Position numbers and translations under genes: made by a program. From Achromobacter sp. Root83 (GTDB lineage: Bacteria > Pseudomonadota > Gammaproteobacteria > Burkholderiales > Burkholderiaceae_B), in contig NZ_LMIU01000001.1 in NCBI RefSeq assembly GCF_001428845.1, positions 682,984-746,983 of the forward strand: a stretch of DNA of 64,000 nt. Direction: 5' to 3'. Numbering within the stretch: the stretch's first letter is position 1; the number at the start of each line of letters is the position of its first letter. The notes under the pieces were generated by a model. That model was not told the DNA's origin. It worked only from the letters and a program-made list of their open reading frames with translations, and searched no databases. Of this stretch, positions 10,294 through 62,570 are shown one piece after another.

Positions 10294-10377
10294 TTAATCC
10301 GTCAGCAAGTTCCAATTGAAGTCGTAGACTTAATTTCCTCTGTTCAACGCCGTTATCTCCCGAATAGGAGACGCGCG

Positions 10378-11109
10378 ATGATTGATGAGATTTGGAATTT
10401 TTTTACTCGTCTGGGACAGTTGCTCGGCTATACGGGGCAAATGCCAAATTGGTTGGCAAATATAGCGTCCGTGATGCTCGCCCTTGCCATGGTCGTCCTG
10501 TTTTGCAAGCACCTGAATGTTGCGGGCCTGCTGGTTTGGAATCAAAAGCGGAAAGTCGAAGCTCGAGCGGTGCTTGAGGCCTTTTTGGCAAGAGAAAGCA
10601 GTGATACCCCTACCAGGCGAGCGATTAAAGAGCGTTTGGAAGCGCTGTATTTTTTGGGTGCCTACAGAATATACGCGGAACAGCCCTTGCGTGACGAACT
10701 GATTCAGCTGCATGAATCCGCAAAAGGACAGTTGTGTTGGGTTCATATTCGGCGCGCGTCGCAGCTCCTGAAAATCGAAAATGGGCGCTTGATGGTGCTG
10801 AACTGGTGGAAGTCGAGCCACGCTTTGACGATTCTGTGGGCTTGGGTCATGCAGTTGGTCTTTGGCATGATCACGGTCTATTGCGCCTTTGTATTCTTCA
10901 AAGCGAAACCTTTGTCGGCCGGCGACGGCGCCATATTGCTGTTTGGAATCGTATTAAGCGGGTGGATCACCTTGTTCGCCAACAGCGCACTTTGGCCCTT
11001 CGCGGACGCGAAAAGAATTCGGAAGCTCCTGCCCCTTACACGAGAGTCGGGTGAGCACCGCAAGAAAGATGCTTGCGAGCCAAGGAAGCCGCAAAAGAAA
11101 GGGAGTTGA
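10378..11109 (+). CDS. Hypothetical three-helix membrane protein
   Basis: 243 residues; I do not recognise the family. Three hydrophobic segments are visible: about residues 23-43 (WLANIASVMLALAMVVLFC), about 153-174 (TILWAWVMQLVFGMITVYCAF) and about 184-205 (DGAILLFGIVLSGWITLF). A charged middle domain (residues 55-145) lies between the first two, and the C-terminus is Lys/Arg-rich. Base composition is lower in GC than the upstream IclR gene, suggesting an accessory gene. It stands alone before an AT-rich gap. Confidence 0.7.
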   Translation: MIDEIWNFFTRLGQLLGYTGQMPNWLANIASVMLALAMVVLFCKHLNVAGLLVWNQKRKVEARAVLEAFLARESSDTPTRRAIKERLEALYFLGAYRIYAEQPLRDELIQLHESAKGQLCWVHIRRASQLLKIENGRLMVLNWWKSSHALTILWAWVMQLVFGMITVYCAFVFFKAKPLSAGDGAILLFGIVLSGWITLFANSALWPFADAKRIRKLLPLTRESGEHRKKDACEPRKPQKKGS

Positions 11110-11562
11110 CGCTGCCGATGGTTCGGCCGAGTTAGCTGTATCGCGGGATGGAGCGAGCTCGGCGCCATTCCCACCTCTGAAGAGGCGCACACAAAGATTT
11201 CAATATGCAACCCGATTGTCCAGCGAAAGGATGATCCTGAACCATTTTTTTGCGACAACGGATGGTATCCGAATCTTCTAAATTCGGCAGATGGTTGGTA
11301 TCTATCTGACTCAAATATGTAGAACTACCGACGATTCGCCCAGCCATAGTACGTATATCAGTCGTATGCCGTAGAACTATTCGCCAAATTAATCGCATGT
11401 TTCCCCATTTATTAATGGGGCCCCAATAAAAATCGTTATACATTCCCCACTTTTTTCCAGAGCTGACCCTTAATTCACGCCGGCCGCATTATTACTTACC
11501 GATACGTATTAAGCATATCGGTAACGCGTGAGAGGAAGCTCGATTAAATCCGGAGGAATGTT
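11110..11562. other. AT-rich intergenic region upstream of the autotransporter
   Basis: No convincing gene. It is clearly richer in A+T than its surroundings from about 11,190 on. It holds a 7-bp perfect hairpin (CCCCATT, loop TATT, AATGGGG) at 11403-11420 and a larger dyad at 11496-11524, listed separately. The hairpin could end transcription of the preceding membrane-protein gene but is not followed by a T-run. Confidence 0.5.
11496..11524. promoter_or_regulatory. 29-bp perfect dyad before the autotransporter gene
   Basis: Two perfect 9-bp arms, TTACCGATA (11496-11504) and TATCGGTAA (11516-11524), are separated by 11 bases. The dyad ends 26 bases before the GGAGGA ribosome site of the autotransporter. 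Position and symmetry suggest an operator for a dimeric regulator controlling surface expression. No regulator gene lies next to it. Confidence 0.5.
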
Positions 11563-14541
11563 TTGGCATACGGCACAAAGAAATGGCTGACGGCGACGCT
11601 CGCCTTGAGCGCGTCCTACGGGGGTAGCGTTACGGCCGCGGACCTGACCATTGGATCGGGCAATACGCAGGTTTTTGACGGATCGGCCAACTTCCCAGGG
11701 GGAATCGACGTCAACGGCGGCACGGCAGTTATCGGCGGAAACGGCGGCGGGGCGGGCGTGACGATCGGTGGGAACGTCAACGCAATGTCGAACGGCACCG
11801 TCGCGGGCTTTGGTGCGATCAATGGCGATTTGAACGTGAGCGGAAATTCCCGAGTCGCGCCGGGATATTGGGTTGACACGCCGACTGGCGTTTCCAACGG
11901 CAATCTCGTCGTGAACCGCAATCTGTCGATCAACAACGGGATTTTCGATTTCGAGGCCGGTTATGCAGGCCTGCCTATCACGCAGCCGGGTACCGGCGAC
12001 AACATCACTGTCGGCGGCGACGTTGCCCTCAATAACGCGACCTTGAACGTCAAGGTCAGCACGCTGGGCGCCAACGCCGGCTTCTATCGCATCATGTCCT
12101 ACGGCGGCACGTTGAGCGGCAATGGCTTGTCGCTGGGCACGGTCTCCGGCGATTCCGTGCCTGCTGCAACCATCCAGACGCTGACCGGCGACAAGCACAT
12201 CAACCTTGTCCTGGGCCCGAGCACGACCAATCTGTGGAATGGCAACGGCGTGGCGTCCGCCAGCCGCGCGGGCGGCGGCGACGGCACGTGGAGCGCGACG
12301 AGCGCGAACTGGAACAGCCCCACCAACGCTGCCGGCGCGCTGCCCGATGGCGGCTATGCGATCTTCACCGGCGCGGCGGGGACGGTGACCGTGGATGGCA
12401 GCGCCGGCCCCGTGCGCGTGTCGGGCCTGCAGTTCGCCACTGACCGGTATCGCTTGCAAGGCGCGCCCATTACGCTGGCCGGTACCGGCGGCAATCCCCC
12501 CGTGATCGTCGTCGGCGACGGCACGTATGCGGCAGGCAAGTTCGTCGAGATCATCGACAACCCGCTGCAAGGCACGCAGGGCTTCGTCAAGACGGGTGTT
12601 GGCTCGGTGATCCTGAACGCCGATAGCAGCAACCTTACCGGTCCCATCTTCATCGCCGACGGCGCACTGGAGATCAACGGCAAGCTGAACGGACCGGTCG
12701 ATATCGGCCGCGAAGTGGTGCTGGCGGGTGTCGGGCAAGTGGGCAGCACGACGCTGTATCCCACCGCGGTGATTTCGCCGGGTAACGATGGCACGCCGAT
12801 GGGAACGCTCACCGTCAACGGCAACCTCGACTTCGGTCAGGACACGATCTATCGCGTGCATGCCGATCCCACGAGCAGCCTCAGCGACCGCATCCACGTG
12901 ACCGGCGTCGCGAAGCTCGATGGCACCGTCGCGCACGTGGGGCCCAACGGCAACTATGCGCCGCGCACGACCTACAACATCCTGACCGCGGACGGCGGCG
13001 TCCAGGGCCGCTTCACCGGCGTGTCCAGCGCGTATGCGTTCCTCACGCCCTCGCTCAGCTATGACGCGAAGAATGCGTTCATGACGCTCTCGCGCAATGA
13101 CGTGCCTATCGGCAGCGTGGGCGACACAGACAATGAGAACAGCGTGGGCGGCGCGCTGGACCAGGAAGCTCCGCCTTCGAGCGGCAATGGTTCGGCGTCG
13201 ACGGGCAATGGTTCGGGATCGACGGGCAACGGCTCGGCTTCGACCGGCAATGGCTCGGCATCGGCGGGCAACGACGCGGCTTCGTCCGGTAGTGGTTCGG
13301 CATCGACGGGCAATGGGACCGCATCAACCGGCAACGGCACCGCATCGACCGGCAACGGATCGACCACCACCGGCACCGGCTCCGCGCCCACCGGCACGAA
13401 TCCCGTTGTACCCGGCGCCGACTCGTCCTTGGTTGCCAGCGGCAACGGCGCAGCCAAGACCACGGGCGCCAGCCAGGTGACGGCGGCGGTACTTTCCATG
13501 ACGCCTGACCAAGCGCGTGCGGCCTTGAAGCAGCTTTCCGGCGAAGCGTACGCCAGTACCGGCAGCGTGCTGCAAGGGCAGGGCGACGCCGTGCGGACGC
13601 TGCCAATGTCGCACTTGCGCGGCAACCTCGACGCGCCCATGGCCGCCGGACGTCCGACTGCCCAACTGGGCGCACCGTCGTCCGATGCCCTGCCGCAAAG
13701 CGGCGCATCGCCCGTCTGGGCACAGGCGTTCGGCAACTGGAGCACCTTCGGCGGTGACGGCAACGCATCCACCGTGCACCAATCCGCGGGCGGTCTCTTT
13801 GTCGGCGGCGACGGCGCCGTGGGCAACGGCTGGCGCCTGGGCGGCGCGTTCGGCTATACCGGCAGCCACAACTCCGTCGCCGACGTGTCGTCGCGCATGA
13901 GCGTCGACAGCTACACGGCAACGGTCTTCGGCGGCAAGAACTTCGAAGCCGGCCCGGGGCAATTCCGCTTCACGGCGGGCGCGGCCTACACCTGGCACGA
14001 GATCGACGCCAAGCGCAATGTGGCGCTTGGCGGAGTGAACCAGCGCCTGGAGTCGTCCTATAACGCCTCGTCGACGCAAGTGTTCACCGAACTCGGCTAC
14101 AAGCTTCCGCTGGGCGACGCCTACGCCCTCGAACCCTTTGCGGGCGTGGCCTGGAACCAGATCCGCACGCGCGACTTCCGGGAGTCGGGCGGCACCGCCG
14201 CCCTGCACGGCGAGGGCAGCACGGACGACGTGACCAGCACCACGCTGGGCCTGCGCGGCGCCATGCTGATCGGTTCCGACAGCGCGCCGGGCCGCCTGAC
14301 CGCCACCTTGGGCTGGCGCCATGCGATGGGCGACGTGAAGCCGACGCAGAAGCTGGCTTTCGAAGGCGGCAGCACGTTCTCGGTGTCGGGCGTTCCGATT
14401 GCGCAAAATGCGGCAGTGCTGGGATTGGGCGCTGAAGTGGCGATCACGCGGAGTACGATGGCTGGCGTGGCGTATGACGCGCAGTTCGGCGGAGGGAACC
14501 GCCAGCAGGCGGGGATGTTTAGGTTGACGACGCGGTTCTAA
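11563..14541 (+). CDS. Type V autotransporter with beta-helix passenger and C-terminal barrel
   Basis: 992 residues. TTG at 11563 is the start: GGAGGA lies 7 bases upstream, and the nearby ATG at 11559 is in another frame that stops after ten codons. A signal peptide (KKWLTATLALSASYGGSVTAA) precedes a Gly/Asn-rich passenger with repeated beta-helix rungs (GGIDVNGGTAVIGGNGGG, FVKTGVGSVILNADSSNLTG, GALEINGKLNGPVDI). Residues 541-610 are a ten-copy 7-residue linker. The outer-membrane barrel runs from about residue 716 (SPVWAQAFGNW) to a terminal Phe in MFRLTTRF. It should display its passenger at the cell surface; adhesin is the usual guess, with no protease motif seen. Confidence 0.92.
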   Translation: MAYGTKKWLTATLALSASYGGSVTAADLTIGSGNTQVFDGSANFPGGIDVNGGTAVIGGNGGGAGVTIGGNVNAMSNGTVAGFGAINGDLNVSGNSRVAPGYWVDTPTGVSNGNLVVNRNLSINNGIFDFEAGYAGLPITQPGTGDNITVGGDVALNNATLNVKVSTLGANAGFYRIMSYGGTLSGNGLSLGTVSGDSVPAATIQTLTGDKHINLVLGPSTTNLWNGNGVASASRAGGGDGTWSATSANWNSPTNAAGALPDGGYAIFTGAAGTVTVDGSAGPVRVSGLQFATDRYRLQGAPITLAGTGGNPPVIVVGDGTYAAGKFVEIIDNPLQGTQGFVKTGVGSVILNADSSNLTGPIFIADGALEINGKLNGPVDIGREVVLAGVGQVGSTTLYPTAVISPGNDGTPMGTLTVNGNLDFGQDTIYRVHADPTSSLSDRIHVTGVAKLDGTVAHVGPNGNYAPRTTYNILTADGGVQGRFTGVSSAYAFLTPSLSYDAKNAFMTLSRNDVPIGSVGDTDNENSVGGALDQEAPPSSGNGSASTGNGSGSTGNGSASTGNGSASAGNDAASSGSGSASTGNGTASTGNGTASTGNGSTTTGTGSAPTGTNPVVPGADSSLVASGNGAAKTTGASQVTAAVLSMTPDQARAALKQLSGEAYASTGSVLQGQGDAVRTLPMSHLRGNLDAPMAAGRPTAQLGAPSSDALPQSGASPVWAQAFGNWSTFGGDGNASTVHQSAGGLFVGGDGAVGNGWRLGGAFGYTGSHNSVADVSSRMSVDSYTATVFGGKNFEAGPGQFRFTAGAAYTWHEIDAKRNVALGGVNQRLESSYNASSTQVFTELGYKLPLGDAYALEPFAGVAWNQIRTRDFRESGGTAALHGEGSTDDVTSTTLGLRGAMLIGSDSAPGRLTATLGWRHAMGDVKPTQKLAFEGGSTFSVSGVPIAQNAAVLGLGAEVAITRSTMAGVAYDAQFGGGNRQQAGMFRLTTRF
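13183..13392 (+). repeat. Ten-copy 21-bp tandem repeat coding for a GNGSAST linker
   Basis: Ten in-register 21-bp units encode GNGSAST-like heptads (variants GNGSGST, GNDAASS, GSGSAST, GNGTAST, GTGSAPT), residues 541-610 of the autotransporter, between passenger and barrel. Because the unit is a multiple of three, changes in copy number would alter linker length without breaking the frame. Confidence 0.9.
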
Positions 14542-15012
14542 GTGGGTCTGGCAAGGTTCGGAGCGTTGCCCTTCGGTGGGCATCGTTCCGGGCGTTGCTG
14601 CACCCGGCCTGCGCGGGGCAAAGGGCAAGCGGTATCTGGCCCTTTCCCGCGTCTCGTTGGGCTTCCCCCTTTGATTACCCCTGCTGGCGAAGGCGGGCTT
14701 TCCGCTTGCGCCAATTTTTCCATCGCGACTTCCAGGACGGCGCGCAGCGGCGATGCGCTCTGATGCCGCCCGGACAGTTCGATTGATTCCAATGAAAACT
14801 CGGTGCAGATTGGCGCCACACAGTGTGTGGCGACTGAACCAACTCGATTAAAGGAATCTATCGACAAAGTCCAGATCATCTAAACGGGCCGGTATTGAGC
14901 AGTAGGCCAATTAAAGTTCGGGTAATATTTGAAAACATTCGTCACGTACCCGTATGTTCACGATCATGGCGGCAAAGGCGATTCGATAACGCTTATAGCT
15001 AGTGAGGACTGC
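14542..15012. other. Intergenic junction between the autotransporter and the defence island
   Basis: I see no gene. A weak hairpin (AAAGGGC at 14620-14626, GCCCTTT at 14639-14645) may end autotransporter transcription. A compact 8-bp hairpin (CGCCACAC, loop AGT, GTGTGGCG) lies at 14814-14832. Composition becomes less GC-rich from about 14,770, consistent with the left edge of an acquired segment. No tRNA or integrase is visible. Confidence 0.45.
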
Positions 15013-16653
15013 ATGGCACGCCGTAATGGTTTCGGAGCGTTTATCAAGGCTGCGGCGAGAGTGGCGGCAGCTTCTCAGCGAGAAAGTCAGCGGGCCGCAA
15101 GAAGGCAACTGACCTATGCCAGACAAGTAGAACGAGAAGAGCACAGAGAAGCAGCGCAACATCACCGGGATCTGCGAAGGCTTGCTGCGCAGCAGGCTCG
15201 CGAAGATCGAGAAGCCGAGAAGGTTTTAAAGGCGCAGTACCTCCAGGACCGCCAAACTGAAGCCGACGACCTTAATGCGGAGTTGAATGAAAAAATAGAA
15301 GAGCTGCAAGACATCCTGGCGCATACGCTTCGCCACGATGACATCATCGACTTCGACAGCCTCCGACAATTTGACGTGTTCGCGCCCTTCGAGATTGCGG
15401 CGGAGCTTCACCCGAGCGATCCTCCATCATTGATCAACGTTCCCGCCCCAGCAGGCTTGAAAAAGTTGATTCCCGGTGCTAGCGGCAGGCATCAAGCCGC
15501 CGTAGAGAAAGCAAAGATCCAGAACCAGCAAAGGCTGGAGAGCTTTCGTTTGTTGGAAGAAGACAAGCAGGCGCAAGTCTCTATCCTGAAAGAACACTAT
15601 CTACAGAAGAAAGCGCAGTACGACGCTGACGTGGCTCGTCGTAACGCGGAGGTAGACGAATTCCAAACGACATACCTGGCTCACGATGGCGACGCGGTCA
15701 TCGCATACAACGAAATGGTGCTCATCCGATCCGAGTACCCGGAAACCGGTTTCCCCCAAGAGTTTCGCCTTGCCTATCGAGACGACGCGAAAGAGCTAGT
15801 GGTGGAATACGAGCTGCCACAGGTATCGGTGATCCCAACAGACTTGGAACACCGATACGTCAAGACTCGCGACCAAATCGACATCAAGCCTCGAAAGCCT
15901 GCTGACATCAAGCGGCTCTATCAAGACATTGTGGCGTCTATCGCGCTCCGGACACTGCACGAATTGTTTGAGGCCGATCAAGCTGATGCGTTGGCCCTCG
16001 TCACCTTCAATGGCATTGTTGATACTACGGATCCCGCAAGTGGAAGAGAGATTCGCGTGCCGGTCGTGTCGGTGAGGGTTGGTAAAACGGAATTTCAGTC
16101 GCTGCGGCTCGATCGTGTAGAGAAGATCGCATGTCTCCGGAACTTGGGTGCACAGGTCTCGAACAGACCTGATGAGTTGCAGGCAATCAAACCAATCGTT
16201 GAGTTCAACATGGTCGATAAGCGATTCATTGACCAGGGAGATGTGCTGAACGATCTGGAATCGCGGCCGAATCTATTGGATCTGACGCCGGGTGACTTTG
16301 AAGTGCTTGTGTCAAACCTGTTTAGCCAGATGGGGCTGGATACCAAACTAACCCGGGCATCTCGGGACGGTGGCGTGGACGCAGTCGCTTTTGATACTCG
16401 ACCAATTTTGGGCGGCAAGGTCGTTATTCAGGCGAAGAGGTATAGGGATACCGTTGGCGTCAGTGCGGTACGAGATCTGTACGGGACGATGATGAACGAA
16501 GGGGCTACCAAGGGGATACTGGTTTGCACCAGTGGGTATGGTGTCGATGCTTACAAGTTTTCGCAGGATAAGCCGATTGAATTGATTGATGGTGGCGGGT
16601 TGTTGTATCTGCTTAGAGAGCATGCCGGGGTCGAAGCTAGGATTATGAATTAG
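15013..16653 (+). CDS. Mrr-type restriction endonuclease-like protein with long coiled-coil N-terminus
   Basis: 546 residues from ATG 15013, which has GTGAGGA upstream; a TTG start at 14929 is less likely. Residues about 10-110 and 155-215 are highly charged (Arg/Glu/Gln/Lys) and look like coiled coils. The C-terminal 130 residues form an Mrr-like PD-(D/E)xK nuclease: LTPGDFEVLVSNLFSQMG, the metal-ligand Asp456 in DGGVDAVAF, and Q473-A-K475 in VVIQAKRY, then DLYGTMMNEGATKGILVCTS. Mrr enzymes cut modified or foreign DNA. It opens a defence island followed by RloC-like and TIR-like genes. The middle domain (about 215-420) is not recognised. Confidence 0.82.
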   Translation: MARRNGFGAFIKAAARVAAASQRESQRAARRQLTYARQVEREEHREAAQHHRDLRRLAAQQAREDREAEKVLKAQYLQDRQTEADDLNAELNEKIEELQDILAHTLRHDDIIDFDSLRQFDVFAPFEIAAELHPSDPPSLINVPAPAGLKKLIPGASGRHQAAVEKAKIQNQQRLESFRLLEEDKQAQVSILKEHYLQKKAQYDADVARRNAEVDEFQTTYLAHDGDAVIAYNEMVLIRSEYPETGFPQEFRLAYRDDAKELVVEYELPQVSVIPTDLEHRYVKTRDQIDIKPRKPADIKRLYQDIVASIALRTLHELFEADQADALALVTFNGIVDTTDPASGREIRVPVVSVRVGKTEFQSLRLDRVEKIACLRNLGAQVSNRPDELQAIKPIVEFNMVDKRFIDQGDVLNDLESRPNLLDLTPGDFEVLVSNLFSQMGLDTKLTRASRDGGVDAVAFDTRPILGGKVVIQAKRYRDTVGVSAVRDLYGTMMNEGATKGILVCTSGYGVDAYKFSQDKPIELIDGGGLLYLLREHAGVEARIMN

Positions 16654-16811
16654 CTATGCTTAATTCTTTTCCCCGCGGCGATAACTTCCGTTCGAAACAA
16701 GATGTCAGACTACGATTTCGCCGTGTGGAATTTGAAATTGCAGTCTTATACCTTTATTCAAGATACATTCTATGTTAGTACTTTGAACGTCACTGTAGAG
16801 GGGCGGAGCCG

Positions 16812-19238
16812 ATGATTAGTCATATTGACATAGCAAACTTTGGTAGTTTCCAAGGTCTAGATTGGAAAAATTCCGTTAGAGACGACGGAAGAAACGTCAA
16901 GCTCTTCCATCGTTTGAATATCCTCTACGGACGCAACTACTCCGGCAAGACAACGCTCTCCCGCGTCTTCCGTTCGTTGGAGACTCGTAAGCTCCCGTTG
17001 AACTATGTGGGCTCGTCATTCACTGTGACAGGTGACAAGGGGGTGGCAACCCATTCTGACCTGGCCACTCACAACTACGACGTTCGGGTCTATAACCGCG
17101 ACTTCGTAACCGACAATCTGAGCTTCCTCGTTAATCAGGAAATCGGTGGTGTCATCAAGACGTTCGCCATCGTCGGTGAGCATAATAAGGAACTTGACGA
17201 AGCTATTGCCGCCATTGAGACGAAACTTGGCAGCATTGAAGGAAAATCCGGACTGCACTTTGATTTGGAAGCTAAGAGGAAAGAGCGCGATCGCACTACG
17301 TCTAGCTATGGCACTACGGCAAGTGGTCTGGAGAGAAAGCTGCGTTCACATGCTGCGGAGAAAATAAAAAAGAACCGTGAGTATGGCTCCGCTGTCTACA
17401 ACATTGACCACATCAAACGCGATATTGCCTCCATTAAGAACGCAGGTTTTGTCGCGCTGACCACCGAGGGGCAAGCAAGCAAACTTAACTTGCTCAGGCA
17501 GGAGGCCCTGCCGGAAATTACTGGCACCCTAAACATCACCCTCAAACTGGCGTCTCTAACGGCCACTGCCGAACCGCTGCTGTCCAAGACGATAGCCCCG
17601 ACAAAGGCGATTGAAGAGTTGCTCAAAGACAGCGCCTTGCAGCTCTGGGTCAAGCAGGGCATGGGTCATCATCGGGAAAAACGGAGCACATGTGCTTTCT
17701 GCCGCCAGGATCTGCCGCACGATCTATGGCAGGTGCTTGATGAGCACTTCAGCAAAGAGTCAGGCGAGTTGGAAACGGCCTTGGACGCGGCTATCACATC
17801 AGTTGCGGAAGAGATGGGCACCATAGCGGGGCTCAACGCTTTCACAGGTGCACAGTTCTACGCTGACGAACGCATCGCGTTTGAAGCAAACAGTAAAGCG
17901 CTATCCGAGGCTCTGGCCGTCTATAAATCGGACTTGGAAACCCTTAAAAAATCGCTTGGAGCTCGGAAAGACAACCTGTTCCTGCATGTGTCTTTGAAGC
18001 CACCTTCGCATGACGTAAAGAAAATAGGGAAGCTTGTTGATGACATTAATGCGCTGATCGTCACGAGCAATGGCAAAACCGCCACCCTGGAAAGGGACAA
18101 GACCGCTGCCCGGGATGCACTTCGCCTAACTGACGTATCCGCATTTGCTGATGCAATCACCTACGACAAGGAACTTAACCGTATAGAAACCCTGAAGGCG
18201 GAGGCCGACACGGCAGCTACGGCCTACAACGATGCGGAGAAGGAGATTCGTGACGCCGAGGCAGAAATTCTGGCTTTCAGAGCAAAGCAGAAGGACGAGC
18301 GAAAGGGCGCAGAGCGGGTCAACTCCCTACTTAACAATTTTTTTGGCCATGACGGTATCAAGTTAGAAGCCCGTGACGGTACCGACGAGGCCACGGTCAA
18401 GTTTGAGATCACACGAGACGGGAAGGCTGCGTACAACCTTAGTGAAGGCGAGTGCAGTCTTATAGCATTTTGTTACTTTATGGCAAAGCTTGAAGAGCCG
18501 GAAAGTAAGGGCAAAGACTTGATCATCTACATTGATGATCCAATCTCAAGCTTAGACGGCAATCACATCTTCTTCATGTTCAGCTTAATTGAGAGCCTGA
18601 TAGCTAAACCTATCAAGAACGCTGGCCAGTCAAACTCGTATCGCTACAAGCAACTCTTCATCTCCACCCATAACCTGGACTTCCTGAAATACCTTAAGCG
18701 GCTTTCCATTCCGACCAAGAAAATTACGGCCGGAGAAGGTAAAACCAGGAGTGTTAGCGATCATGAGCACTTCATGATTGAACGTAATGGGGCGTCAAGC
18801 AATATCCTGCTGATGCCGTCCTATCTCAAAGACTACATTACCGAATTTCACTATCTTTTCCACCAAATCTACAAGTGCAGAGATCAAGCTGCGGCTGTAG
18901 ATAATCACGAGCCTTTCTTCGGATTTGGCAACAATCTGCGCAAATTTTTGGAAGCATTCCTGTTCTTTAAGTTTCCATATCACGACGATAAAAATGATGC
19001 CTTTGAACGAATAAAGAAATTTTTCGGCGAAGAAGAAGATGCTGCGGTTGCCCTCGTCAATCGTCTCAATAATGAGTTTTCTCACCTTGAAGCAGTCCCT
19101 GATCGGGGCTTCAAGCCGGTAGAAATTCCGGAAATCGCCAAGGTTGCAAAGTATGTTTTGGACAAAATTTATGCAGCTGACAATATACAGTACAACGCGT
19201 TGCTAAAGAGCATTGGCGAGCCTGAACGGGTGGACTAA
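16812..19238 (+). CDS. RloC/PrrC-like ABC-ATPase, candidate anticodon nuclease
   Basis: 808 residues, AAA_13-type. Seen: Walker A GRNYSGKTT (Lys46); long coiled coils either side of a Rad50-like zinc hook C294-A-F-C297; ABC signature LSEGE (543-547); Walker B IIYIDDPISSLD (Asp575-Asp576); and a C-terminal R710-KFL-E714 with H758 in NNEFSH. R-x3-E plus a distal His is the catalytic pattern known for PrrC/RloC tRNA anticodon nucleases, and the zinc hook distinguishes RloC from PrrC. Such proteins cleave a tRNA anticodon loop upon DNA damage or phage attack. RloC genes often sit with type I or III restriction genes; here the neighbour is an Mrr-type nuclease. Family is fairly clear; nuclease activity is inferred. 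Confidence 0.82.
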   Translation: MISHIDIANFGSFQGLDWKNSVRDDGRNVKLFHRLNILYGRNYSGKTTLSRVFRSLETRKLPLNYVGSSFTVTGDKGVATHSDLATHNYDVRVYNRDFVTDNLSFLVNQEIGGVIKTFAIVGEHNKELDEAIAAIETKLGSIEGKSGLHFDLEAKRKERDRTTSSYGTTASGLERKLRSHAAEKIKKNREYGSAVYNIDHIKRDIASIKNAGFVALTTEGQASKLNLLRQEALPEITGTLNITLKLASLTATAEPLLSKTIAPTKAIEELLKDSALQLWVKQGMGHHREKRSTCAFCRQDLPHDLWQVLDEHFSKESGELETALDAAITSVAEEMGTIAGLNAFTGAQFYADERIAFEANSKALSEALAVYKSDLETLKKSLGARKDNLFLHVSLKPPSHDVKKIGKLVDDINALIVTSNGKTATLERDKTAARDALRLTDVSAFADAITYDKELNRIETLKAEADTAATAYNDAEKEIRDAEAEILAFRAKQKDERKGAERVNSLLNNFFGHDGIKLEARDGTDEATVKFEITRDGKAAYNLSEGECSLIAFCYFMAKLEEPESKGKDLIIYIDDPISSLDGNHIFFMFSLIESLIAKPIKNAGQSNSYRYKQLFISTHNLDFLKYLKRLSIPTKKITAGEGKTRSVSDHEHFMIERNGASSNILLMPSYLKDYITEFHYLFHQIYKCRDQAAAVDNHEPFFGFGNNLRKFLEAFLFFKFPYHDDKNDAFERIKKFFGEEEDAAVALVNRLNNEFSHLEAVPDRGFKPVEIPEIAKVAKYVLDKIYAADNIQYNALLKSIGEPERVD

Positions 19239-19636
19239 TGCGGCAATAAAATGCCAAGCTGCAGTTTCGTAGTTGGTGGTGCTTGGAATTGCAGTCTGCC
19301 GCCTTTATTCGCGTGCGATGAGTAGTCTGTCATGATACCGGCACGAAAGGCCGCTGCCGCTGCAAAGCCGACGTAAGCGGACGTCAACGCGATAGCCGGC
19401 TCCCGGAGAGAAGCGGACATTCTTGGGGGATCCGAAATGTCCAGCTCCGCGGGCCCCTATTGCCCACCGCCGGCTATCGGAATGGGTCTGGCCAGCCTAT
19501 TTACTCGGGAAAATACCACTTCTACCGGGGGGGCTCTATCGTGGGAAATATAAATTCCGCCCGTTATCAAAGCTTTATCTTACTACTTTGTCAGAATAGA
19601 TATATTTTTAAATGCTAACCCAACATCATTTTTTCC
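19239..19636. other. Long intergenic region inside the defence island
   Basis: No supported gene in about 400 bases. It contains an 11-bp perfect inverted repeat (CGATAGCCGGC at 19390-19400, GCCGGCTATCG at 19469-19479, 68 bases apart), then an AT-rich stretch from about 19,550 to the TIR-like start that probably holds its promoter. The GC-rich first half contrasts with the AT-rich second half, which suggests a junction between segments of different origin. Confidence 0.4.
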
Positions 19637-20578
19637 ATGAAAACTAGCCTTTTTATCTCGTATGCTTGGACGTCGGATCCTCATCGTGCGTGGGTTAGGC
19701 TGCTAGTAAATCAATTTAGACTACTTGGTTATACAGTACAGATCGATGCGGCTGTAGAATATGGATCCAATCTAAACAGTTTCATGAGAGAACTGACAGC
19801 GGCCGATCACGTACTGCTAATTGCAGACGATAATTACGTTACCCGGGCCGACGAGATGCCCAATTCGGGTGTTGGTATCGAAAACCGTTGGATCAGAAGC
19901 GTATTCAAAGAAAAGCCAATCTCATGGCTTTCCGCTCTTTTCGTAAACAATCCTAAATATAGGTTGCCAGCTTGGTTAGTGGATGAAAATCCCAAGGGAT
20001 TCGACTTCAATTCTTACGTGGACAGGAGCGACTTTCCCGGGGTTGATCAGATAGAAAGTCTTTGGCGGTGGGTGGAGGGATTGCCGGCTGACAAAGCGCA
20101 TGCGCTCCCAGCTTCAGTGCTACTTGAACGCATTGCTCGCATTGAGCGAATTGATGCCATGCGTGATCCATCAAACTATGCTAACCCTGCGCTGGCAGAT
20201 CGAGTGACCTTTCGCCACCGTGACCACAATGCGTACACATTGGGTCACGGGGAATACGAGTTCAAGTTAGCGTTCAGCGATCATGGTGACGATAGCGTTT
20301 ATATATACAGAGACCATGGCCTCCACGCCGTTGGGCTTATCACCGCACGTGATTTCGATCGGCACACCGTTGATATATTTTTGAGACCCGGGAGAACCGA
20401 GAAACCGCGTGTGGGCCAAAGTGTCGTAGTGATGAACTCCTTTGGAGCTTTGTGCATCATCGAAATTGAAGGGGTGCAGCGTGAGACCAATGCGGCCAAA
20501 TTCGTTCCGGGAGAGGTAACTTTTCGATATGAGATTCTGATTGACCTGCTCCCCGTGAATAGTACGAAATCGACGTAG
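19637..20578 (+). CDS. TIR/SEFIR-like domain protein of the defence island
   Basis: 313 residues. The first 140 look like a TIR- or SEFIR-type domain: SLFISYAWTSDPHRAWVRLL, then VQIDAAVEYGSNLNSFMREL, DHVLLIADDNYVTRAD and an ENRWIRSVF segment. Bacterial TIR proteins commonly deplete NAD or make a nucleotide signal during phage infection; SEFIR proteins are related. Residues 180-313 form a second beta-rich domain I do not recognise (DHNAYTLGHGEYEFKLAF, GQSVVVMNSFGALCIIEIEG). GC content is low. It stands 400 bases after the RloC-like gene and just before IS relics. Assignment rests on motif pattern only. Confidence 0.65.
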   Translation: MKTSLFISYAWTSDPHRAWVRLLVNQFRLLGYTVQIDAAVEYGSNLNSFMRELTAADHVLLIADDNYVTRADEMPNSGVGIENRWIRSVFKEKPISWLSALFVNNPKYRLPAWLVDENPKGFDFNSYVDRSDFPGVDQIESLWRWVEGLPADKAHALPASVLLERIARIERIDAMRDPSNYANPALADRVTFRHRDHNAYTLGHGEYEFKLAFSDHGDDSVYIYRDHGLHAVGLITARDFDRHTVDIFLRPGRTEKPRVGQSVVVMNSFGALCIIEIEGVQRETNAAKFVPGEVTFRYEILIDLLPVNSTKST

Positions 20579-20601
20579 AGTCCATTCTCAAAGGAATCGC
20601 A

Positions 20602-20810
20602 ATGAAAAAAGCGATCGCGGAAGCTAAAATCATCGGCGTACTCAAGGAGGCCGATGGGGGGCCAAGCCTGCTGAACTGTGTCGCAAGCACGGGACGGCGT
20701 ACTACAAATGGAATGCGAAGTTCGGCGGCATGACGGTGTCGGAGGCTCAGCGCCTAAAGGAGCTAGAGCAGGAGAACAACAAGCTCATGAAGCTGTTAGC
20801 CGAGTACCGA
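20602..20810 (+). pseudogene. Frameshifted relic of an IS3-family orfA (transposase helper)
   Basis: The ATG at 20602 begins an orfA-like N-terminus (MKKAIAEAKIIGVLKEADGG). At the G-run near 20,656 the matching frame shifts by one base: the continuation AKPAELCRKHG, YYKWNAKFGGMTVSEAQRL, LKELEQENNKLMKLLAEY lies in another frame. Four residues usual between the HTH helices appear to be missing. Similarity ends near 20,810, and no orfB with DDE residues follows. This is a dead insertion-sequence fragment marking past mobility on the right side of the defence genes. Confidence 0.75.
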
Positions 20811-20954
20811 CGTGTAGAGAAAATGAAGGCGCGCTGCCCGAATCTGGACAGTCTGTCAGATCAATTTTGCGAAAACTTGGGTTGGAAGTTTTGGCTGTTG
20901 GATCGAATTTCGGAAGGGTTTTTATAATACTTTGAGAGATAAAAGCGCGGACAG

Positions 20955-21530
20955 CTATGTGGAACTAGGGCGGTGAAACCTAGCCGAGGCTCTACCTGCC
21001 TCTAGTAGTGCTTGAAATGCCTCTCCAATAACCTGCTCCGTTTCTTGAATTTGAATGAGAACCAGCTTCAGGGCTTGTATTATCTCCTCCTCGTTGGCTG
21101 AGTCTGGAAGTTCTCCTAGAAACTGAGACATGCTTCTTAAGCGGTTAACTTGAGCAAATGCCGCAGCTAGTCGATTGCTAACGACTTCATTGAAAAGGTC
21201 TGCTTTGTCCAGGAACTGAGATGGAAATTCAAGGGTTATCAAAGAGGCCTTGAATGCCAATTCCTTTCGTCCTGTTTGATTGTCGAGTACTTTCAATAGG
21301 AAAGTAGTATCTTCGCCACCAGGGGGAACAACTAGGCTCCGGAATTTGGCAATCTCCAACTGGGCTGCACCTACCGGTACTGTCATGATCTGAGCGATAA
21401 GTCGTCTAGCCGCTCGTCGCTCCCGGCGTCTGCAGTATCGATCAACGAGCCAAATCCCCAAGGCGGTTAAGGCGGCAAAAGCAGTCCAATCTATTTTTGA
21501 TCCTTCGCAGATCAGCATAGGTACTTCCAT
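20955..21530 (-). CDS. Hypothetical membrane-anchored protein
   Basis: 191 residues, not recognised. A single N-terminal hydrophobic segment (about residues 14-30, WTAFAALTALGIWLVDR) is followed by a basic patch (YCRRRERRAARR), typical of an inward-facing anchor, then a helical soluble domain. Start may be 21530 or the ATG at 21518, which has GGAAGT upstream. It lies on the minus strand beyond the IS relic, in the same accessory segment. Confidence 0.6.
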   Translation of the reverse strand: MEVPMLICEGSKIDWTAFAALTALGIWLVDRYCRRRERRAARRLIAQIMTVPVGAAQLEIAKFRSLVVPPGGEDTTFLLKVLDNQTGRKELAFKASLITLEFPSQFLDKADLFNEVVSNRLAAAFAQVNRLRSMSQFLGELPDSANEEEIIQALKLVLIQIQETEQVIGEAFQALLEAGRASARFHRPSST

Positions 21531-21962: not shown

Positions 21963-22284
21963 CGCAGCCTCCTTTGTCGTCAGACCCGCTTCCCGCTGTC
22001 ATTCGGGGTGGGCGGGCGCAAGGCCGGGTGACAGACCGGTGACAAAAGAAACCGGCGCACGCAAGCGTGCCCCAGCCAAGGCCCGCCCATAGCAGGGACG
22101 TGCTTCGGCCTACGGACGCAAAAATGCCGCTGTTGCAGCGGCTGTCCGCCTTTTGTCATTTCCGGCTGTCAATCCGGACGGTCATTGGTGTGACCGCAGC
22201 GCAAGTATAAGGCGTACAGCTTGGGAGGTAGCAATGACGCGTAGTGGCAATTTCGTCTCTGTCGAGACGATAACGCACAAAACA
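21963..22284. other. Intergenic region with small hairpins
   Basis: No gene seen. It contains a perfect 7-bp hairpin (GCCGCTG, loop TTG, CAGCGGC) at 22126-22142 and a shorter CACGC/GCGTG hairpin near 22,058-22,067. It probably includes the promoter of the 103-residue gene on the minus strand. It may be the right boundary of the accessory region; no tRNA or attachment repeat was found. Confidence 0.4.
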
Positions 22285-22315: not shown

Positions 22316-23164
22316 CTATGCCACCTGCGGCACAAAAAACCGCTCCCTCAATTCCTGCAACCCAATTCGATCCAACATCTCCGTCAACCGTTCCGCAGGC
22401 TTCCTCGTCGGCAGATTTTTATACTGCGCGATGATCAGCTCATTCTTCATCGAATGCTCCCACCCGACCAGCTCAGTGACACTGATCTGATACCCATGCG
22501 CCTCAAGCTGCAGACACCGCAGCACATTCGTAATCTGGCTCCCAAACTCCCGCGTATGCAGCGGATGCCGCCAAATCTCCGCCAGCGGATCAGCCAGAGC
22601 CTTTGCCTTATTCTTCCTCAGCACCGAAGCCACCTCAGCCTGGCAGCAAGGCACCACCACGATGTACTTGGCCCTCTTCTCCAACGCAAAATGAATCGCG
22701 TCGTCGGTGGCGGTATTGCAGGCGTGCAGGGCAGTCACGACATCGATGGACTCAGGCAGTTTGTCCGAGGTAATGGACTCAGCCACCGACAGGTTCAGAA
22801 ACGACATGCCGTCAAACCCCAGGCGCTTGGCCAGTTCCTCTGACGACTTCACCAGTTCTTCTCGGGTCTCAATCCCATAGATATGCGACCCATTCTTCAG
22901 CGCCTCCGGCTGTTCCTTGAAGAACAGGTCATACAGAATGAAGCCCAGATACGACTTCCCCGCGCCGTGGTCGGCGAGGGTAACAGCGCCGCGTTGTTCC
23001 TGAACGTCCTTAAGCAACGGCTCGATGAACTGAAACAGGTGATAAACCTGCTTCAGCTTACGGCGGCTGTCCTGGTTCATCTTGCCGTCGCGGGTCAGGA
23101 TGTGCAGGGCCTTGAGCAGTTCTATTGACTGGCCGGGGCGGATGTCGTGGGTTTTTTCGGACAT
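22316..23164 (-). CDS. SAM-dependent methyltransferase (Methyltransf_32-like)
   Basis: 282 residues. The SAM-binding motif I region is TLADHGAGKSYLGFILYD, followed by HIYGIETREELV. SIDVVTALHACNTATDDAI and YIVVVPCCQAEVA form the later Rossmann strands, with the His/Cys pattern typical of the Methyltransf_32 family. The substrate is unknown; related proteins are conserved single genes of unclear role. It has its own terminator and no operon partners. Confidence 0.8.
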   Translation of the reverse strand: MSEKTHDIRPGQSIELLKALHILTRDGKMNQDSRRKLKQVYHLFQFIEPLLKDVQEQRGAVTLADHGAGKSYLGFILYDLFFKEQPEALKNGSHIYGIETREELVKSSEELAKRLGFDGMSFLNLSVAESITSDKLPESIDVVTALHACNTATDDAIHFALEKRAKYIVVVPCCQAEVASVLRKNKAKALADPLAEIWRHPLHTREFGSQITNVLRCLQLEAHGYQISVTELVGWEHSMKNELIIAQYKNLPTRKPAERLTEMLDRIGLQELRERFFVPQVA

Positions 23165-60753: not shown

Positions 60754-60820
60754 TTGATTTTCGGACGTGCTAAAACCAAATTGCTTGCATGGGGTTTACA
60801 AAATATATAGATTAGGCGCT

Positions 60821-61642
60821 ATGAGTGATCAAAAATCCGGAAAATTAAACCAATTGCTGGTGCAACTGGATGATTCGCGCTTGGTGTCAAGTCGCTGGTT
60901 GCGGGCGCATGGGTACTCCAGCAGCCTCGTCGCGCGCTACGTGAGCAGCAGTTGGCTGGTGTCGCCGGCGCGCAGCGTTTATATGCGCAAGGGAGGGCGC
61001 CTGCGGTGGGAGGGCGTGGTTCGCAGCCTCCAGATTGGGGAGGGGATGCCGCTGCACGTCGGGGGCCGCTTTGCGCTGAGCCTGCAGGGGCACGAACACT
61101 ACCTGCGCTTAGGTGATGCCGGGACGATCACCCTTTATGGGCCGGAGCGGCCGCCGGGCTGGCTGGGACAACTACCGCTGGAACAACGCTTCGAGTTTCT
61201 TGGCAAGGGGCCGTTTGACCTGCCAATCGTGTCGTACACCACCGAATTGTTCGAGAAAGCGCTGTCCGACCAAGGGCTGGACTGGCATCAGGCTGCGGCC
61301 GGTGCCGATACCCTGGTCTGCTCGACGTCCGAGCGGGCCATGTTGGAGCTGTGCGATGAGGTCTCGGACGCGGCGCTGGTGTACGAGGCCGATGCGCTGA
61401 TGCAGGCCATGACTACGCTGCGACCGCAGCGGGTTGGCCTGCTGTTGCGCCACTGCCGCAGCATCAAGGCTAAACGGTTATTCTTGGCGCTGGCCGGACG
61501 CCATCGGCATGCGTGGTTGTCCCATGTACCTCTGGATGGCGTTGACCTAGGCCGGGGCAAGCGAGCATTGGTGCCGGGGGGACGTCTGCATCCTACCTAC
61601 CAGATCACGTTGCCAGGAGACCTTGATGAACACCTGGCTTGA
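60821..61642 (+). CDS. abiEi: AbiEi-family type IV antitoxin and transcriptional repressor
   Basis: 273 residues from ATG 60821. The N-terminal winged-helix segment (SGKLNQLLVQLDDSRLVSSRW, then VARYVSSSWLVSPARSVYM) matches AbiEi DNA-binding domains; the C-terminal domain (ERAMLELCDEVSDAALVYEA, LLLRHCRSIKAKRLFLALAG) matches the AbiEi antitoxin domain. It neutralises the nucleotidyltransferase toxin and autoregulates. Its end overlaps the toxin start by 17 bases. Confidence 0.85.
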   Translation: MSDQKSGKLNQLLVQLDDSRLVSSRWLRAHGYSSSLVARYVSSSWLVSPARSVYMRKGGRLRWEGVVRSLQIGEGMPLHVGGRFALSLQGHEHYLRLGDAGTITLYGPERPPGWLGQLPLEQRFEFLGKGPFDLPIVSYTTELFEKALSDQGLDWHQAAAGADTLVCSTSERAMLELCDEVSDAALVYEADALMQAMTTLRPQRVGLLLRHCRSIKAKRLFLALAGRHRHAWLSHVPLDGVDLGRGKRALVPGGRLHPTYQITLPGDLDEHLA

Positions 61643-62570
61643 CCGTTGGGATCGGCGCTACACCGACCGAGTGCGCCTGCTGGTTGAGATCTTGCCGGTA
61701 CTGGCTCAGGAGCCGGGCTTCGCACTTAAGGGCGGCACGGCCATCAATCTGTTTGAGCACGACTTGCCACGCCTGTCGGTAGACATCGATCTGGCTTGGC
61801 TGCCGGTGCATGACTATGTCGAGGACGCAAGGCTGATTGCAGAAGCACTCGGACGACTGGCGGATATCCTCCGTGCACGTCCAATGAAATTGCAGGTGCA
61901 GTTGTCCGCGGGCGAGGGTGCGGTCACTCGGTTGGTGGCCAGTCGCGGCCGCGCGCGCGTGCAGATCGAGACGACGCCGGTTATGCGCGGCACGGTCCAT
62001 CCAGTGCGGAGCATGGTGGTGCGTCCGAAAGTGGAGGAGGCATTCGGATTTGCCTCCGTGCAGGTGCTGAACTTCGCCGATCTCTATGCCGGAAAGCTGG
62101 CTGCGGCATTGTCCCGGCAGCATCCGCGTGATCTTTTCGACATCGGATTGTTGTTGGAGGATGAGCGAGCTGACTCGGTACTTTGGCGAACCTTTCTTGT
62201 GTATCTGACCTGCAGTCCCAAGCCCGCCTGGGAGATGCTGGCGCCTCGCGTACCGGCGGATTTCGCTGTGACCTTTGATGCGCACTTCAAGGGAATGACG
62301 GCCGCGCCGATCGAGGCCAGAACCCTGCTGGAGATCCATGAGCGGCTACTGGCTCGCGTGGCAGGGTGGCTGGACGAGCCGTCGTGCGCGTTTCTGAGGG
62401 CCGTAGAAGATGAGCAGTCGGACTTCGGCCTGATCGGGCTTCCACACGCGGTTGGCTTGCCGGCAGTGCGACGCAAGTTGCATAACCTGGCCCAGCGTAC
62501 CGCGGCCAAACGAACCGCGGATCGGGACCAGTTGGAACAAACGCTGGCACGAATCGTCGGCCCCAGATGA
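61626..62570 (+). CDS. abiEii: AbiEii-family nucleotidyltransferase toxin
   Basis: 314 residues from ATG 61626; AGGAGA is five bases upstream. Catalytic features of AbiEii/DUF1814 nucleotidyltransferases are present: K35-GGT in FALKGGTAINLF and D53-x-D55 in RLSVDIDLAW; VLNFADLYAGKLAAALSRQH and PRDLFDIGLLLED are also family signatures. The toxin blocks growth, probably by modifying RNA, on phage attack or loss of antitoxin. It forms a type IV TA pair with the gene before it. Confidence 0.88.
   Translation: MNTWLDRWDRRYTDRVRLLVEILPVLAQEPGFALKGGTAINLFEHDLPRLSVDIDLAWLPVHDYVEDARLIAEALGRLADILRARPMKLQVQLSAGEGAVTRLVASRGRARVQIETTPVMRGTVHPVRSMVVRPKVEEAFGFASVQVLNFADLYAGKLAAALSRQHPRDLFDIGLLLEDERADSVLWRTFLVYLTCSPKPAWEMLAPRVPADFAVTFDAHFKGMTAAPIEARTLLEIHERLLARVAGWLDEPSCAFLRAVEDEQSDFGLIGLPHAVGLPAVRRKLHNLAQRTAAKRTADRDQLEQTLARIVGPR

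What the first reader, a model, noticed from the sequence alone, without database searches (positions are those of the whole stretch)
15013..20578. Candidate three-part defence island: coiled-coil Mrr nuclease, RloC-like anticodon nuclease and a TIR/SEFIR-like protein
Three unlike antiphage-type genes lie in a row on one strand in a less GC-rich stretch that ends in a dead IS fragment. RloC genes are usually with type I or III restriction systems, not with an Mrr-type protein of this shape. The Mrr and RloC-like genes are 158 bases apart and could work together; the TIR-like gene may be a separate module. Gene identity is from motifs; the idea of one functional system is inference.
Basis: partly seen in the sequence, partly recalled or inferred. 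Interest (0 to 1): 0.85.

Follow-up and report, generated by a model that had tools for sequence, protein, structure and literature searches.

The report
Three stand-alone defences in a hotspot
Three neighbouring genes of known anti-virus families, each predicted to protect the bacterium on its own, sit in a chromosomal spot whose contents differ between most related species examined and which holds other anti-virus genes in several of them, so they are likely a mixed collection rather than one machine, and the find is mostly ordinary.

Summary
In detail: three intact same-strand genes (mrr-like 15013-16653, rloC-like 16812-19238, SEFIR/TIR 19637-20578) lie in a 47-52% GC stretch beside a broken IS3-type fragment. 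The "one system" idea fails its own test. Close relatives are not found linked elsewhere: 0 of 60 genome and 0 of 35 viral-contig mrr loci hold rloC or SEFIR relatives; 0 of 23 rloC loci hold mrr or SEFIR. The same Achromobacter site, beside a methyltransferase gene present in 42 of 43 genomes, holds mrr without rloC in one species, rloC without mrr in another, and Hachiman or Gabija genes elsewhere. Each gene has its own working parts: RloC's published triad and zinc hook (R710, E714, H758, C294/C297), an Mrr catalytic fold near AspBHI/MspJI, an invariant SEFIR glutamate. So: three stand-alone defences (predicted) in a modular hotspot. Less ordinary: a palindromic repeat, found around a Y1-type transposase gene, lies at gene borders in the hotspot, brackets another RloC-like gene in one species and an Mrr-type gene in another, and survives, decayed, upstream of this rloC. 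Whether it moves genes is untested.

The parts
10316..21316 (.). Variable part of the hotspot in this strain (approximate, 500-base bins), between a shared left flank and the shared methyltransferase edge
   Evidence: Counts of other species' stretches sharing each 500-base bin
15013..16653 (+). Mrr-type (type IV-like) endonuclease, 546 aa: predicted long coiled coil 7-222, middle domain about 226-380, Mrr_cat 423-533
   Evidence: Pfam and PADLOC; D452, D456, Q473, K475 invariant in 32 sequences; AlphaFold model mean pLDDT 85; catalytic domain like AspBHI/MspJI
16700..16753 (.). Decayed copy of a palindromic repeat that is found in many Achromobacter genomes
   Evidence: BLAST matches in 14 other genomes of the genus, best E=1.8e-6; arms at 16700 (2 mismatches) and 16740 (3 mismatches) to the 14-base core
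16812..19238 (+). RloC-like ABC-ATPase with predicted C-terminal anticodon-nuclease (HEPN) domain, 808 aa
   Evidence: AAA_13, PDC-S06; Walker A 40-48, CxxC 294-297, LSEGE 543-547, Walker B 570-576, R710/E714, H758
19276..19310 (.). Possible second decayed repeat copy after rloC (tentative)
   Evidence: 77% identical over 35 nt to 16725-16759; one 3-mismatch core at 19291, a level that chance also gives
19637..20578 (+). SEFIR/TIR protein (bSEFIR family), 313 aa
   Evidence: PADLOC bSEFIR, TIR_2; SEFIR crystal structures 5y8f/5y8e by sequence; E82 invariant in 28 sequences
20602..20873 (+). Broken IS3-type transposase fragment
   Evidence: Three-frame reading, HTH_Tnp_1 E=2.6e-8
22316..23164 (-). 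Conserved Methyltransf_32 gene that marks the right edge of the hotspot
   Evidence: Pfam E=9.7e-51; in 42 of 43 Achromobacter genomes

Best explanation
This is a variable chromosomal site, about 11 kb long, next to a conserved methyltransferase gene, which in this Achromobacter strain holds three genes of defence families that likely act independently: an Mrr-type nuclease predicted to cut foreign (probably modified) DNA, an RloC-type enzyme predicted to stop translation by cutting tRNA when it senses DNA ends, and a SEFIR/TIR protein predicted to destroy NAD on infection. Shown here: the gene families, open reading frames with catalytic motifs kept, different contents of the site in related species, and no linked close relatives in the loci examined. 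Inferred from characterised relatives: the three activities. Not shown: any protection against phage, and how genes enter or leave the site.
For: Identities. RloC triad R710/E714/H758 kept in 25 of 26 aligned rows and CxxC in 26 of 26, matching G. kaustophilus R692/E696/H737 and zinc-hook C291 (PMC2610378, passages). Mrr catalytic residues invariant in 32 sequences, fold like AspBHI/MspJI. SEFIR E82 invariant in 28. No linkage: 0 of 60, 0 of 35 and 0 of 15, 0 of 9; each of 14 plasmid records matches only one of mrr and rloC. Same site holds mrr without close rloC in G011 and rloC without mrr in G042. Ten large hotspot proteins of other species looked at singly: 7 match PADLOC models.
Against: The three genes do share one strand and a 5.6-kb stretch, and mrr and rloC are 158 bases apart, so a joint transcript is not excluded. 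Flanks held were at most 10 kb and often shorter at contig ends; linkage was tested with the window's own proteins by tblastn, so a distant stand-in partner could be missed. SEFIR loci were hardly sampled (one search shows one). Three of the ten hotspot proteins looked at had no PADLOC match.
Confidence: 0.82

Rival explanations
1. Two-gene relay: the Mrr nuclease would cut incoming DNA and the ends would switch on RloC, which would then shut down translation if the phage survives. SEFIR would be separate.
For: 158 bases apart on one strand. Characterised RloC is switched on by linear DNA and by break inducers (PMC3874168, abstract and passages).
Against: No linkage in 95 mrr and 23 rloC loci. 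A. baylyi RloC responds to breaks without any R-M partner, so it needs none. A decayed repeat copy lies between the two genes.
Confidence: 0.08
2. A true three-part system specific to this lineage, with all three proteins needed.
For: Order and strand in this one genome.
Against: No second example; each protein has its own complete catalytic parts and wide stand-alone relatives.
Confidence: 0.03
3. A decaying island: the genes are leftovers that no longer work.
For: Broken IS fragment and decayed repeat copy beside them.
Against: All three frames are open and full length, with the residues that are invariant in relatives kept.
Confidence: 0.07

Closest known systems
RloC anticodon nuclease (Geobacillus kaustophilus, Acinetobacter baylyi)
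   Same: ABC-ATPase motifs, CxxC in a coiled-coil insert, C-terminal R-x3-E...H triad at nearly the same positions and spacing
   Different: No activity shown here. No characterised RloC was aligned directly; the comparison is with published residue numbers
PADLOC PDC-S06 (single-gene defence candidate)
   Same: The window protein matches model PDLC04887 over its whole length, 1027 bits; a different PDC-S06 subtype (PDLC04890) sits in the same hotspot of G028
   Different: PDC-S06 is a candidate class; its defence function is not stated by the library
Mrr-type / type IV modification-dependent endonucleases (PADLOC mREase_IV; AspBHI, MspJI)
   Different: Long N-terminal coiled coil and a middle domain with no assigned fold; the recognised modification is unknown
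bSEFIR
   Same: PADLOC bSEFIR over residues 1-236, E=1.8e-36; SEFIR-domain crystal structures by sequence
   Different: Only 313 aa and matched to 217 of the 412 profile positions; NAD loss not tested
Modular defence hotspots of Pseudomonas genomic islands (PMC12629846, listing and passages seen)
   Same: Fixed borders with interchangeable defence cargo; SEFIR is among the cargo of one hotspot there. Two of those hotspots (2 and 3) were detected in Achromobacter too
   Different: Here the border is a Methyltransf_32 gene; whether this site is one of the published hotspots was not tested

Membership tests
RloC | ABC-ATPase motifs (Walker A, signature, Walker B, H-loop) | tested here: met
   GRNYSGKTT 40-48, LSEGE 543-547, LIIYIDD 570-576, STHNLD 618-623
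RloC | Zinc-hook CxxC in a coiled-coil insert | tested here: met
   C294/C297, CxxC in 26 of 26 rows; long helices around it in a low-confidence model
RloC | C-terminal anticodon-nuclease triad R-x3-E...H | tested here: met
   R710, E714, H758; kept in 25 of 26 rows, the other being truncated; published R692/E696/H737
RloC | Cleaves tRNA and excises the wobble nucleotide; switched on by DNA ends | not testable with these tools
   Needs biochemistry
PrrC | Lies in a type Ic hsd restriction locus and lacks a zinc hook | tested here: not met
   CxxC present; no hsd gene among the proteins scanned at the island and no such PADLOC family among 31 other long ORFs of the window
Type IV (Mrr-type) restriction endonuclease | Mrr_cat domain with intact PD-(D/E)xK-type residues | tested here: met
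   Mrr_cat E=1.6e-29; D452, D456, Q473, K475 invariant
Type IV (Mrr-type) restriction endonuclease | Cuts only modified DNA, no cognate methyltransferase | not testable with these tools
   The nearby methyltransferase gene is in 42 of 43 genomes whether or not mrr is there, so it is not a cognate partner; substrate untested
bSEFIR | N-terminal SEFIR/TIR domain with conserved glutamate | tested here: met
   PADLOC bSEFIR 1.8e-36; 5y8f/5y8e E about 1.5e-6; E82 invariant in 28. That this is the catalytic glutamate is inference
bSEFIR | NAD loss and abortive response on infection | not testable with these tools
   Needs an infection assay
Defence hotspot | Conserved borders with defence cargo that differs between strains or species | tested here: met
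   38 of 42 sites fetched; variable cargo; PADLOC and Pfam defence families in it. A few sites (e.g. L114, L116, L117) have little variable DNA
Multi-gene defence system (mrr + rloC + SEFIR) | Genes recur together in unrelated genomes | tested here: not met
   0 of 95 mrr loci and 0 of 23 rloC loci

The most novel reading that the evidence does not exclude
Defence genes of this kind in Achromobacter are cassettes framed by a transposase-linked palindromic repeat: the repeats are the seams at which single defence genes (RloC-like, Mrr-type) are exchanged, and the window's rloC is an old cassette whose frame has decayed.
Probability: 0.12. Interest if true: 0.55.

Novelty: new member of a known kind. 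Interest (0 to 1): 0.3.

Why it matters
It settles a plausible 'new system' guess: being neighbours on one strand in a defence island is weak evidence for joint function. It also shows a defence hotspot across most of the Achromobacter species examined, for which two literature searches listed no report of this site (another paper places two Pseudomonas-type hotspots in Achromobacter), and a repeat at gene borders that gives a testable idea of how such sites exchange cargo.

Tried and rejected
Conserved mrr partner: ORFs within 4 kb of 59 of the 60 mrr loci (the short partial L085 dropped; match ends approximate for some) were clustered; the widest cluster is a recombinase-like ORF (name by eye) in 8 loci.

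Rloc-R-M linkage as the rule: not borne out by the RloC papers (passages).

Integron-type cassettes: the repeat lacks the attC end boxes as I recall them; no tool test was made.

RloC fold: the AlphaFold model is poor (mean pLDDT 65; residues 1-124 under 50), with relatives 77-88% identical in the alignment; its best Foldseek matches are Rad50/SMC-like, mixed with microtubule chains, and are not used as proof. No PDB relative by sequence for rloC or mrr at E<=0.01.

Mrr middle domain: no fold assigned; the second-look list is filled by the catalytic domain, so this is inconclusive.

Repeat: the window copy (16685-16770) does not fold better than shuffles (z=-0.06); it is recognised by similarity to other copies. 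The window's own genome has no exact core and no other copy at E<=0.01. Three-mismatch cores in the window (8) are about what I estimate for chance (about 5), so the copy after rloC is tentative.

Promoters and terminators: at shuffle level. Papers holding the word bSEFIR: none in the library. Annotated phages: only distant rloC relatives, 23-26% identity, none covering 80%. SEFIR in viral contigs: no pattern match.

Full report
WHAT IS THERE. The three genes are present, open and on one strand as described, in a stretch of 47-52% GC inside a window of mostly 58-69%. Profiles identify an Mrr-type endonuclease (Mrr_cat 1.6e-29; PADLOC mREase_IV 1.7e-84 over nearly its whole length), an AAA_13 protein that PADLOC files as the single-gene candidate PDC-S06 (1027 bits), and a bSEFIR protein (1.8e-36). 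The IS remnant is real: an IS3-type HTH_Tnp_1 piece with a frame change, cut short. The host is Achromobacter: two same-genus loci lie on contigs of 121,308 and 324,394 bases, and the records of those lengths holding the gene are titled A. insuavis and A. dolens.

THEY DO NOT TRAVEL TOGETHER. A scan of one genome per species found 60 mrr loci with up to 10 kb on each side, shorter at contig ends; none holds an rloC or SEFIR relative at E<=1e-4. Of 35 viral-contig mrr loci (some short or partial matches), none does either. Nine rloC loci (two of the genus, three of the order, three plasmids, one viral contig) and 15 viral-contig rloC loci (one in both sets) make 23, none with mrr or SEFIR; eight weak viral hits were left out. 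Of 14 plasmid records matching the whole stretch as DNA, each matches only mrr or only rloC; the best 40 records listed for each protein (of 93 and 196) share no accession. In 43 Achromobacter genomes full-length mrr is in 3 and close rloC (E=0) in 3, sharing only the window's genome; chance gives at least one shared genome with P=0.20. Counting weak matches, mrr is in 9 (six of them over the catalytic domain only) and rloC in 8; then G011, with mrr, also has a distant AAA_13 gene on another contig. SEFIR in full is found only in the window's genome among the 43 (G035 has an 80-residue match) and among 369 genomes of the class at E<=1e-20. rloC at E<=1e-150 is in 4 of 399 genomes of the order, the window's included. 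On plasmid pG69 rloC lies next to genes annotated as anti-phage, so it keeps varied company. No neighbour recurs with mrr beyond a recombinase-like ORF in 8 of 59 loci.

THE SITE IS A DEFENCE HOTSPOT. The methyltransferase gene at 22316-23164 is in 42 of 43 genomes. The stretch beyond its 3' end was fetched for 38 of those 42 (four are cut by a contig end). After a partly shared edge, most of them have several kb matched by none or few of the others, and a shared left flank then returns in many; a few have little variable DNA. In the window the variable part is about 10316-21316. Inside it, the window's mrr is matched at the same site of G011, 6.6 kb from that genome's methyltransferase gene, and its rloC at the same site of G042, 8.5 kb from its methyltransferase gene. 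From the variable parts 143 ORFs of at least 200 aa were called; 91 were kept (at least 280 aa, GC under 0.63) and 88 scanned, leaving out the window's three. They match 346 PADLOC models at E<=1e-10 (many models overlap) and Pfam families such as AAA_15/21, HamA, SIR2_2, OLD-like TOPRIM, GmrSD and reverse transcriptase. How many of the 88 match anything was not reported. Ten, chosen by me mostly for size, were looked at singly: seven have a PADLOC match at E<=1e-15 (two RloC-like PDC-S06, two Hachiman HamB, one Gabija GajA, one OLD/GajA-like, one PDC-M65B) and three have none. As a rough control, 31 long ORFs from the rest of the window match 6 models, four of them AbiEi/AbiEii; that set includes likely spurious antisense ORFs. 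Searches for Achromobacter with defence hotspots or islands listed no report of this site; one paper detects two Pseudomonas-type hotspots in Achromobacter (PMC12629846, passages), not compared here.

A REPEAT AT THE SEAMS. The gap between mrr and rloC holds a decayed copy (16700-16753) of an imperfect palindrome with matches in 14 other Achromobacter genomes. Its exact 14-base core has 114 matches in 21 of 43 genomes, none in the window's own; the reversed control has none. Thirteen of the 114 lie in the hotspot stretches of nine genomes, against about 0.3 expected if spread evenly (copies cluster, so the formal P-value overstates this), and none of the 13 lies inside a called ORF of 120 aa or more. 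In G028 the repeat brackets a different RloC-like gene, 9 bases before its start and 22 after its stop. In G041, away from the hotspot, the repeat lies 28 bases before and 74 after a 292-aa ORF that holds the genome's Mrr-type match. Elsewhere a Y1-type transposase gene lies between copies (L104), which suggests a REP-like element; the REP/RAYT label is from recall. Many copies also sit in other arrays, outside the hotspot, so the repeat is not specific to defence. The window has a solid copy before rloC and only a tentative one after it. Whether the repeats move genes or just settle in gaps is untested.

VERDICT. Known families, known kind of place, new example. The most likely working is three separate lines of defence: DNA cutting (Mrr), translation stop on DNA ends (RloC), NAD loss (SEFIR). 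All three activities are inferred from relatives; for SEFIR the NAD loss is from recall. An Mrr-to-RloC relay is mechanistically possible but has no support from linkage.

Noticed in passing
window 22004-22094 (-): C4 antisense RNA (RF01695, 58.6 bits) just beyond the methyltransferase gene; similar DNA at this edge in 13 of 38 hotspot stretches, window included. Possible phage-derived edge element.
   Followed up: partly
window 60767-62567 (+): AbiEi/AbiEii gene pair (Pfam AbiEi_3, AbiEii), a second defence-type locus in the same window.
   Followed up: no
L138:11930 and L138:14421 (G028): A palindromic repeat brackets an RloC-like (PDC-S06) gene tightly on both sides in the same hotspot.
   Followed up: partly
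L103:3150-4141 (G041): The same repeat core lies on both sides of a 292-aa ORF holding an Mrr-type match, outside the hotspot.
   Followed up: partly
L099, L100 (G001:C4:596000-620000): Array of the repeat (24 of G001's 28... cores lie from 598 to 620 kb, some as palindrome pairs; 23 of 28 by position) among small ORFs and long ORFs that by eye resemble contact-dependent toxin and immunity genes.
   Followed up: no
L023:7159-7785 (-) (G042): A 208-aa ORF, by eye a tyrosine recombinase, lies about 130 bases from rloC in G042; among all loci held it occurs only in that genome.
   Followed up: partly
L161:5973-7190 (-) (G259): An ORF that by eye is an RtcB-type RNA ligase lies about 1 kb from rloC; coincidence or a tRNA-repair link.
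   Followed up: no
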